A DNA stretch of 21,555 nucleotides from a virus. The first letter of the stretch is position 1, and every line of letters starts with the position of its first letter. Where the stretch lies: IMG/VR virus record IMGVR_UViG_3300028025_002439, positions 1-21,555 of that record; one strand, written 5' to 3'. The translations under genes and the position numbers were made by a program. This document shows, one piece after another, positions 9,999 through 11,747 of this stretch. The notes beneath the pieces are model-generated. The model searched no databases. It was given only the letters and a program-made list of their open reading frames with translations, and was not told the DNA's origin.

Positions 9999-10748
9999 TT
10001 AAATAATTTCTCCGTTTTCATTTAATGTCATATCCATATCAGCCAACTGATGGCAAAACAATTTGTATGCCTCTGCTTTGCATCCTGCTTTCCACAATTC
10101 AAAGTCATTGTATTTGGGCCGTAATCGTTTCGATATTTCAACACGATCTGATTCAGGGCATTGCCAAATTTCAAATTTGACCAAATAATCATATAAAAAT
10201 GCCAATCCTTTTGGCCAATCAAATTTTTGCCCTGTTTGATCCGCCAATTTTATTCGTTTAACGTATGAATTAACATTTGCAATGGCCAATGCTTTTAATT
10301 CATCATCCGTTGGAACCGGTTTAATAATTTCGGGTTCGGGCTTTTTTACATTCTTTGTTTCCTGCCTTGCATATTCAATGTATGCGTTCATTATCCGGCC
10401 AAAGTATTCACACGAAAAATTCTCATAGCATTTGCAATCTGTATTCAATTTTCCTGCAACTGCCATTTCAAATGCAATGGCTATTTCCTCCGGTGTTTGG
10501 TTGCCGTAGTTTGATTTTATAAATGCCAATAAAACATATTTTTCCTCATCTGTCGGCATATTTGATCCACGTAATCCAACCATAAGCATTGCCATACGCA
10601 ATACCTGTTTTAAATCATTTTCGTGCCGTGTACGGATGTTTCCTGTGCTTTGTGCCTTAATGATCAAATTGGCTGTTCCCTTACCAATTTCTGAGGGCCT
10701 CCATTCTTGCGGCACTTGTGCCAAGTTTTTCACCGTTTGAATTTCCAT
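9999..10748 (-). CDS. Probable phage replication accessory protein, 249 residues
   Basis: Not assigned to a named family. It directly follows the replication initiator gene and its start overlaps that gene by 68 nt in another frame. The middle (about 55-130) resembles helicase-loader or replisome-type proteins of Bacteroidota phages: a helical LRMAMLMVGLRG, PTDEEKYVLLAFIKSNYG, EEIAIAFEMAVAGKL, and FSCEYFGRIMNAYIEYARQ. A linker KKPEPEIIKPVPTDDEL (about 134-150) separates a second helical part. No Walker motif is visible, so it is not an ATPase loader of the DnaC type. A role bringing the host helicase to the origin is inferred from position. Its ATG follows a CAACAACA leader. Confidence 0.65.
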   Translation of the reverse strand: MEIQTVKNLAQVPQEWRPSEIGKGTANLIIKAQSTGNIRTRHENDLKQVLRMAMLMVGLRGSNMPTDEEKYVLLAFIKSNYGNQTPEEIAIAFEMAVAGKLNTDCKCYENFSCEYFGRIMNAYIEYARQETKNVKKPEPEIIKPVPTDDELKALAIANVNSYVKRIKLADQTGQKFDWPKGLAFLYDYLVKFEIWQCPESDRVEISKRLRPKYNDFELWKAGCKAEAYKLFCHQLADMDMTLNENGEII

Positions 10749-11355
10749 TGTTGTTGATATTTACTGATTTTTCAAATATACCTGAATAATTATTGGCCAT
10801 TGAATGATTGATAAAATCTTCTAATTGATCATCAGTTATGTGATCCCATTTTTTCAATAATGCAATCTTACCTGATTCGGTGTATTTCTGTTTCTTTTCT
10901 GCTTTGTATTTAAACCACAAATCAAAAATCTCATCCCTCCGTGTTTTTATTATTTCTTTATAGTCTTGTTTTGTATTTAATTGCTTTCTATTGTTTGATG
11001 GTTTTCCGGGCATCGGGTTTCCGAACGTTGGGTTTCCGTACACAGGGTTTCCGTGTGCAGGGTTTTCAATGGTAGGGATTTCATTCAATACATATTCAAT
11101 TTCCCAATGGCCCCATTCGTTTTGTTGTTTTTGCCTGATTAAATAGCCTGCATTTTCCAATTCTTTCAATGCTGATGAAACAGATTGCAATCCTTCTTTT
11201 ATGTGATTTGCAATCCTTTCAGCACTAAAATCCCACCCATCCGGTTTTGATTGAATATAGGCAAATAACCCCTTTGCTTTTAGTGATATTTGATCACTAT
11301 TTACCAAGTCATTCGGAATGACCGAATATTTGGTTTTGATTATCAATTTGCTCAT
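10681..11355 (-). CDS. Winged-helix phage replication initiator
   Basis: This 224-residue protein probably binds the phage origin. Residues about 8-90 form a winged helix of the replisome-organiser type: YSVIPNDLVNSDQISLKAKG (10-29), LFAYIQSKPDGWDFS (30-44), ERIANHIKEGLQSVSSALKE (46-65), AGYLIRQKQ. A linker (98-121) carries five-residue repeats of the xxGNP type, whose DNA forms 15-bp iterons. The C-terminal part (about 130-200) is helical and charged and probably contacts the replication partner or helicase; a low-complexity NNNGNSNG stretch follows. A lambda O-like design is likely. A terminator-type hairpin ends 8 nt before its ATG, so expression is probably controlled by attenuation. Confidence 0.78.
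   Translation of the reverse strand: MSKLIIKTKYSVIPNDLVNSDQISLKAKGLFAYIQSKPDGWDFSAERIANHIKEGLQSVSSALKELENAGYLIRQKQQNEWGHWEIEYVLNEIPTIENPAHGNPVYGNPTFGNPMPGKPSNNRKQLNTKQDYKEIIKTRRDEIFDLWFKYKAEKKQKYTESGKIALLKKWDHITDDQLEDFINHSMANNYSGIFEKSVNINNNGNSNGEKLGTSAARMEALRNW
10940..11075. other. Candidate replication origin: 15-bp iterons plus AT-rich flank
   Basis: On the plus strand GGGTTTCCG begins at 11015, 11030 and 11045, with a degenerate copy GGGTTTTCA at 11060 and a partial one (GTTTTCCGG) at about 11001, all in 15-bp register. They lie inside the initiator gene, in the linker. Next to them, 10941-11000 is about 78% A+T by my count. Iterons beside an AT-rich stretch inside an initiator gene is the lambda ori/O arrangement. 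The repeat also encodes a peptide repeat, so protein-level selection is an alternative. Confidence 0.55.
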
Positions 11356-11360
11356 TTGAA

Positions 11361-11400
11361 AATAAAAAAAGCCGGCTGTGTGAGAGAACAGACCGGCTTT
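11361..11400 (-). terminator. Strong terminator just before the replication initiator gene
   Basis: Read on the minus strand, AAAGCCGG and CTGT pair with ACAG and CCGGCTTT with one bulged base, loop TCTCTCAC, followed by a run of seven T then ATTTT. The T run ends about 8 nt before the initiator ATG at 11355. It would stop most transcripts coming from the upstream early genes, so the initiator is probably made by read-through or regulated antitermination. Confidence 0.85.
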
Positions 11401-11454
11401 GTGGTTTTTAAACCCAATTAATCACCGAAAGACTCTCACCCCTTTCGCTGATTA
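11361..11454 (-). ncRNA. Two-hairpin leader or small RNA with complementary loops
   Basis: Read on the minus strand, hairpin 1 (11454 to 11419) has a 12-bp stem with one G-G mismatch: TAATCA and CGAAAG pairing with CTTTCG and TGATTA, loop GGGTGAGAGT. Hairpin 2 is the terminator at 11361-11400, with loop TCTCTCAC. GTGAGAG in loop 1 is perfectly complementary to CTCTCAC in loop 2 (7 nt). A TATATTTG box at 11460-11467 would start transcription close to the base of hairpin 1. This could be a discrete RNA of about 90 nt or an attenuator controlling the initiator gene. Confidence 0.55.
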
Positions 11455-11459
11455 CATTA

Positions 11460-11467
11460 CAAATATA
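11460..11467 (-). promoter_or_regulatory. Promoter-like TATATTTG box before the two-hairpin RNA
   Basis: Positions 11467 to 11460 on the minus strand are TATATTTG, matching TAnnTTTG. Transcription would begin around 11453-11455, the base of the first hairpin. No clear TTTG -33 element is visible, and the box lies just past the stop codon of the previous gene. Confidence 0.4.
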
Positions 11468-11471
11468 ATGA

Positions 11472-11747
11472 TTAAATCAATATTGCATTCTTTAATGGCT
11501 TAAATTTAAACAGGTTGCCATATTGTGGATGCTCTAAAACAAATTTCCGGGCATACATCGGTGCAAAATTGTTGTTCACCTTGAATGGATCGTTATTACT
11601 TCGGAATGTGTATTCGTAACGCATTTGCTCAAATATGTACTTTGATCCAATCTGCCTGCGCCCCTCTTTTGCCATTTTAAAAGCAATCATTTTGTACAAC
11701 TCATAAATGTGTTTGTTGCTTTGGTCGTATTGCTGAAACGTTATCAT
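11472..11747 (-). CDS. Conserved phage hypothetical protein, 91 residues
   Basis: This matches a small phage protein type I recognise by pattern but not by function: F then N and a helix LYKMIAFKMAKEGRRQIGSKYIFEQMRYEYTF-like segment (about 16-48), then FKVNNNFAPMYARKFVLEHP (about 55-74), then NLFKFK. The FKxNNNxxPxYAR box followed by an aromatic HPxY is shared by many siphovirus early proteins. It is the last gene before the RNA element and terminator at 11361-11454. Its start overlaps a 53-residue ORF by 47 nt. Confidence 0.75.
   Translation of the reverse strand: MITFQQYDQSNKHIYELYKMIAFKMAKEGRRQIGSKYIFEQMRYEYTFRSNNDPFKVNNNFAPMYARKFVLEHPQYGNLFKFKPLKNAILI

What the first reader, a model, noticed from the sequence alone, without database searches (positions are those of the whole stretch)
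11361..11454. Two-hairpin RNA with complementary loops directly before the replication initiator
Seen: a 12-bp hairpin (one mismatch) and a strong terminator hairpin, with loops complementary over 7 nt (GUGAGAG with CUCUCAC), ending 8 nt before the initiator ATG. A TATATTTG box sits where transcription would begin at the first stem. Known: plasmid replication genes such as pT181 and IncFII types are controlled by loop-loop RNA contacts and attenuation. Inferred: this is either an attenuator setting phage replication level or a discrete small RNA of about 90 nt. A kissing interaction, or antiterminator pairing by the first loop, could switch read-through.
Basis: partly seen in the sequence, partly recalled or inferred. 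Interest (0 to 1): 0.78.

Follow-up and report, generated by a model that had tools for sequence, protein, structure and literature searches.

The report
Kissing-loop leader RNA of phage replication
Just ahead of its replication genes this virus of bacteria makes a ~90-letter RNA of two hairpins whose tips are complementary, and dozens of related viruses keep those tips matched while their letters change, so the tips almost certainly pair and probably act as a switch that decides whether replication genes are read.

Summary
Loop 1 (GUGAGAG) is complementary to the terminator loop (CUCUCAC). In 60 distinct relatives ("class A") all seven loop-loop pairs are Watson-Crick in every sequence, in five compensated versions; the covariance model used for that alignment did not include these pairs. 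Both stems covary and G.U wobbles fix the strand. An unrelated RNA ("class B") with the same layout and its own compensated loop pair occupies the same slot in sister phages. The RNA heads replication operons whose initiators have five different N-terminal types. Two further unrelated RNAs of the same layout precede HNH endonuclease genes, one of them in cultured Flavobacterium and Polaribacter phages. None is in Rfam 15. In the nine near-complete genomes checked the loop words occur only inside the element. Best reading: a transcription-attenuation leader, with its ~90-nt terminated RNA, governed by a kissing loop. The pairing is close to proven by covariation. Attenuation is inferred from anatomy. 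The switching signal, and cis versus trans action, are untested.

The parts
11460..11467 (-). -7 promoter box TATATTTG (Bacteroidota TAnnTTTG); predicted +1 about 11455
   Evidence: TAnnTT(T/C/G)N lies 12-14 nt before the foot of hairpin 1 in 56 of 64 relatives; consensus and position from PMC9723704
11419..11454 (-). Hairpin 1: 12 bp around a conserved purine-purine mismatch (G11448.G11425), 10-nt loop 11441-11432
   Evidence: 10 of 12 pairs change on both sides among 60 distinct relatives
11433..11439 (-). Loop 1 kissing word GUGAGAG
   Evidence: Pairs with 11380-11386; five compensated versions in class A
11403..11414 (-). Linker hairpin GGUU-UAAA-AACC
   Evidence: 3 of 4 pairs show double changes; linker 15-19 nt
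11368..11400 (-). Hairpin 2: intrinsic terminator stem, bulged U, 8-nt loop 11387-11380
   Evidence: Stem covaries; mean stem energy -15.8 kcal/mol; loop length 8 in all 60 distinct sequences
11380..11386 (-). Loop 2 kissing word CUCUCAC
   Evidence: 420 of 420 pairing cells Watson-Crick against loop 1
11359..11370 (-). U-rich tract after the terminator stem
   Evidence: Sequence
10681..11355 (-). Replication initiator gene, HTH_36 type, first gene after the leader
   Evidence: PHROG 428 replication initiation protein 5e-18; Pfam HTH_36
10999..11073 (.). Iteron-like repeats (15-bp GGGTTTCCGNNNNNN, about 4 units) inside the initiator gene, possible origin of replication
   Evidence: repeats in 92 of 99 related initiator genes
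11472..11747 (-). Upstream gene, PHROG 13625, function unknown; usual left neighbour of the leader

Best explanation
A transcription-attenuation leader heading the phage replication operon. Shown: conserved promoter box; hairpin 1 at the predicted 5' end; terminator directly before the start codon of the first replication gene; loop-loop pairing kept by compensatory change. Inferred: RNA polymerase starting near 11455 makes hairpin 1 first. When the terminator's 5' arm and loop emerge, loop 1 pairs with loop 2 before or while the terminator's 3' arm forms. Whether this kissing helix is made sets the fraction of polymerases that end at the U tract (giving a ~90-nt RNA) or read into the initiator gene and across its iterons. 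My guess, by analogy with the kissing loop proposed for the guanidine-IV riboswitch, is that kissing favours read-through. What tips the balance (a phage or host protein, an ion or ligand, or the released ~90-nt RNA binding in trans) is unknown.
For: Loop-loop pairs: 420/420 cells paired in 60 distinct class A RNAs, three of seven pairs changed on both sides, on an alignment made by a model without these pairs; five loop versions, each fully complementary only to its own partner, other runs 4 nt at most. Class B, same slot and same layout: 100% paired, 6 of 8 loop pairs changed on both sides. Strand: 35 G.U against 2 A.C. Between terminator and ATG there is no room for another promoter, so any minus-strand transcript of the initiator must pass the terminator. 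The leader precedes initiators with five different N-termini; where a small gene intervenes the initiator is usually next. Leader class and loop version vary independently of initiator type, and class A is swapped for class B beside initiator genes 88-93% identical in DNA. In nine near-complete genomes the loop word occurs only in the element. Two more unrelated RNAs with the layout lie just before other genes.
Against: No RNA, expression or termination data. Kissing in itself leaves the terminator stem intact, so its effect on termination may be nil or of either sign. No conserved antiterminator pairing was found. The ligand or protein is unknown. With the short linker an intramolecular coaxial 7-bp kiss may be sterically tight (inference), so pairing between two molecules is not excluded.
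Confidence: 0.6

Rival explanations
1. Trans-acting dosage or incompatibility RNA. The terminated ~90-nt RNA accumulates with genome copies and its loops pair with the loops of nascent leaders, adjusting initiator expression by copy number. Loop versions would act as compatibility groups between co-infecting phages.
For: Loop changes fall in the middle three positions and give mutually non-pairing versions. Versions are swapped independently of the initiator. Four versions occur among six phages of one metagenome. In plasmids, loop mutations create new incompatibility groups (PMC4485353). The short linker may favour pairing between molecules.
Against: Both loops are in the same RNA, so self-pairing should compete. 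Identical versions also co-occur in that sample. The same layout at HNH genes has no obvious copy-number role.
Confidence: 0.2
2. A free-standing phage small RNA acting on host RNAs or proteins; its place before the initiator is incidental and read-through is low-level leakage.
For: Own promoter and strong terminator; compact stable fold. Loop words have no second site in nine near-complete phage genomes, so a target would be in the host.
Against: The leader stays with replication operons while initiators of different type change beside it, and the minus-strand initiator transcript must cross the terminator. Paired loops leave little free sequence to act on a target.
Confidence: 0.12
3. RNA that multimerises through complementary loops, in the manner of phi29 prohead RNA or GOLLD/ROOL, with a structural role.
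Against: Immediate upstream placement at replication and HNH genes is not explained.
Confidence: 0.05
4. The hairpins act as DNA (cruciform, protein-binding or origin structure), not as RNA.
For: Near an iteron array in the initiator gene.
Against: Strand-specific wobble, 35 G.U to 2 A.C; promoter box at fixed distance; U tract only on one side; loop pairing has no DNA rationale.
Confidence: 0.03

Closest known systems
Guanidine-IV riboswitch (mepA motif)
   Same: A kissing loop is proposed to form and to promote read-through of a terminator (PMC11611296)
   Different: No Rfam match; not upstream of guanidine export genes; loop words vary freely with compensation instead of being a conserved ligand pocket; phage replication and HNH genes
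Antisense-RNA control of plasmid replication (pT181, pIP501, R1/IncFII, ColE1)
   Same: Loop-loop kissing, control of an initiator, loop changes that alter specificity (PMC4485353)
   Different: Here both loops are in one RNA on one strand; no antisense promoter or transcript was identified; the host is a phage
HK022 put RNA antitermination (own knowledge; no paper found)
   Same: Two-hairpin phage RNA in early operons acting on elongation
   Different: put has no complementary loops and lies upstream of separate terminators; here hairpin 2 is the terminator
phi29 prohead RNA
   Same: Small phage RNA with complementary loops
   Different: pRNA is a packaging-motor part; this lies at replication genes and ends in a terminator just before an ORF

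Membership tests
Transcription attenuator leader (general kind) | Intrinsic terminator between promoter and first codon of the controlled gene | tested here: met
   box, terminator, U tract, then ATG in relatives
Transcription attenuator leader (general kind) | Alternative structure that excludes the terminator stem (antiterminator) | tested here: not met
   No consistent pairing of the terminator 5' arm in prefix folds (22 of 64 over half paired, inconsistent). Only the loop kiss is conserved
Transcription attenuator leader (general kind) | Regulated read-through | not testable with these tools
   Needs transcription assays
Kissing-loop RNA | Loop-loop pairing kept by compensatory change | tested here: met
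Guanidine-IV riboswitch | Match to a known Rfam riboswitch family | tested here: not met
   no match at gathering score; whether a guanidine-IV model is in this Rfam copy was not checked separately
Plasmid-type antisense copy control | Antisense RNA from the opposite strand over the leader | tested here: inconclusive
   Wobble pattern supports the sense strand only; an antisense promoter was not tested in depth
Any Rfam 15 family | Score above gathering threshold | tested here: not met

The most novel reading that the evidence does not exclude
A previously undescribed kind of leader in Bacteroidota phages: a 5' hairpin whose loop kisses the loop of the terminator that follows it, evolved in at least four unrelated sequences. 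In the replication version the released same-strand RNA acts in trans on nascent copies, so that loop versions are compatibility groups of lytic phages, as in plasmids.
Probability: 0.2. Interest if true: 0.92.

Novelty: new variant of a known kind. Interest (0 to 1): 0.76.

Why it matters
It adds at least two RNA families absent from Rfam (class A and class B), with unusually clean covariation proof of a 7-8 bp loop-loop contact, tied to when an environmental phage group starts replication. The same design recurs in four unrelated sequences, two of them before HNH endonuclease genes and one of those in cultured Flavobacterium and Polaribacter phages. That points to a general phage control device in which a terminator is addressed through its loop rather than its stem, and it gives simple loop-swap tests in culturable systems.

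Tried and rejected
Rfam: nothing at gathering score for the window or relatives of classes A, B, C and D; weak hits only at relaxed threshold. DNA similarity to cultured phages: none for class A or class B queries. Bacterial genomes: the pattern hits lie in unrelated sequence without the two-hairpin layout, and 395 Bacteroidota genomes gave no model match or PHROG 13625 match; neither search had a positive control. Classical antiterminator: no conserved alternative pairing. Loop target elsewhere in the phage: no second copy of the loop word in nine near-complete genomes. Conserved ORF inside the element: disfavoured by linker lengths of 15-19 nt. A third thing in the same slot (a single GC-rich hairpin leader without terminator, L159 and relatives) was set aside as different.

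Full report
WHAT IS THERE. The genes around the finding run on the minus strand. After the stop of a 91-aa gene (PHROG 13625, unknown function) come TATATTTG (11467-11460), hairpin 1 (11454-11419), a short linker hairpin (11414-11403), a terminator hairpin (11400-11368), a U-rich tract and the ATG (11355) of a replication initiator. The loops GUGAGAG and CUCUCAC are complementary over 7 nt. The predicted fold beats all 200 shuffles (z -5.2). In Flavobacterium the TAnnTTTG box lies at -12 to -5 (PMC9723704), which puts the RNA 5' end at about 11455, the foot of hairpin 1. The window is a 21.6-kb viral metagenome record. Its host is not stated; promoter type, the nearest terminases (Bacteroides, Phocaeicola and Flavobacterium phages) and the class D phages below point to Bacteroidota.

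RELATIVES. Scans with the initiator, the 91-aa protein, DNA patterns and two protein alignments brought in a large set of related viral contigs. A covariance model (R1) was built from one loop version with stems only. It found 64 class A elements, one per locus, and in a search of 42 whole viral records one true copy in each of 29; phages with class B lack class A. The window element scores 112 bits.

COVARIATION. On that alignment (60 distinct rows) 95.7% of cells pair, 24 of 36 pairs change on both sides, and none of 500 shuffles reaches the observed values; sliding the partners by one column drops pairing to 41-51%. The loop-loop helix was not part of the model. Its seven pairs are nevertheless intact in all 420 cells, and three of them have double changes (A-U/G-C/C-G, G-C/A-U, G-C/U-A). 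The five loop versions are GUGAGAG, GUAGGAG, GUCGGAG, GUCAGAG and GUGGUAG. Each matches its own partner over 7 nt and the others over at most 4. An eighth pair exists in about half of the sequences; the window has U.U there. Wobble cells are 35 G.U against 2 A.C, so the RNA is the minus strand. Loop 2 is exactly 8 nt and the aligned loop 1 ten columns in all 60; the linker is 15-19 nt.

A SECOND RNA IN THE SAME SLOT. In sister phages the class A element is replaced by an unrelated RNA (class B) with the same layout and the opposite polarity: a pyrimidine word in loop 1 and a purine word in the loop inside a longer terminator hairpin. In 12 distinct class B sequences all counted pairs are intact and six of eight loop pairs change on both sides (GAUCUCAC/GUGAGAUC, CUUCUCAC/GUGAGAAG, GUUCUCAC/GUGAGAAC, CUCACUAC/GUAGUGAG, CUCUCGAC/GUCGAGAG). 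The swap happens beside initiator genes 88-93% identical in DNA.

WHAT IT STANDS IN FRONT OF. The next gene (or the second, after a small gene, an HNH gene or a methylase-like gene) is an initiator-like protein of about 230 aa with one of five N-terminal types (HTH_36, two Lin1244-like types, a DnaD/DnaA-like organiser, and an O-like type). The C-terminal ends fall into a few types that combine with all N-terminal types. Some loci continue with a DnaB-type helicase. Ninety-two of 99 initiator genes contain short tandem repeats resembling iterons (window 10999-11073), so, as in lambda, the origin may lie inside the initiator gene and transcription that passes the leader would also cross it (inference). 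Loop version and class are not tied to initiator type, which argues against the initiator being the ligand.

THE SAME LAYOUT ELSEWHERE. A scan for box, hairpin and complementary terminator loop without any sequence model also found other RNAs. Class C lies directly before HNH endonuclease genes in five independent loci, with compensated loops CUGCAAC/GUUGCAG and CUACAAC/GUUGUAG. Class D (CCGCCAAG/CUUGGCGG) lies before an HNH gene in cultured Flavobacterium elemo phages and before a beta-lactamase-fold gene in cultured Polaribacter phage Freya_1, with a compensated inner-stem change between them. Some phages carry two leaders with different loop words (L083: B and C; L174, L252: A and C). None matches Rfam.

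HOW IT PROBABLY WORKS. The minus-strand transcript of the initiator has to pass this terminator, because there is no room for a promoter after it. A conserved promoter followed at once by a terminator makes sense as an attenuator. The only conserved interaction that could modulate it is the loop kiss: no antiterminator pairing is conserved. A kissing loop that promotes read-through has been proposed for guanidine-IV riboswitches (PMC11611296). Isolated loop duplexes are worth about -10 to -12 kcal/mol. Kissing does not itself open the terminator stem, so the sign of the effect is my inference. The released ~90-nt RNA could also act in trans: the loop words have no second site in nine near-complete phage genomes, so the only partner within those genomes is another copy of the same RNA. 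Loop mutations create new incompatibility groups in plasmids (PMC4485353), and four loop versions were found among six phages of one sample, but identical versions co-occur there too.

CONFIDENCE. Conserved structured RNA with loop-loop pairing: about 0.97. Attenuation leader of the replication operon: about 0.6. Trans dosage control: about 0.2. No expression evidence was available.

Noticed in passing
window 10999-11073: About four 15-bp units GGGTTTCCGNNNNNN inside the initiator ORF; related initiator genes carry other short tandem repeats at a similar place, with units that tend to follow the N-terminal type. Probable iteron origin as in lambda O.
   Followed up: partly
window 10681-11355 and relatives: Initiators are modular: five N-terminal types are combined with a few C-terminal tails (e.g. 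TSAARMEALRNW, NDKPIINKEWL, NGTFVNPYK).
   Followed up: partly
L083, L174, L252/L324, L327, L328: Class C kissing-loop leader directly before diverse HNH endonuclease genes, own TAnnTTTG-like box, loop covariation.
   Followed up: partly
L146 about 1670-1755; L316 about 2525-2613; L317: Class D kissing-loop leader shared by Polaribacter phage Freya_1 and the unrelated Flavobacterium elemo phages; Danklef_1 has HNH genes at that position instead.
   Followed up: partly
L159, L162-L168, L172-L174: In some phages the slot after PHROG 13625 holds a box plus a single GC-rich hairpin (GGGCCGGUC..GGCUGGCCC) leader without a terminator, often before an MTRKQFA-type gene.
   Followed up: no
window 11472-11747: PHROG 13625 protein, widespread in unrelated phages (Acinetobacter, Polaribacter, Mesorhizobium, cyanophages), no Pfam match, function unknown.
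   Followed up: no
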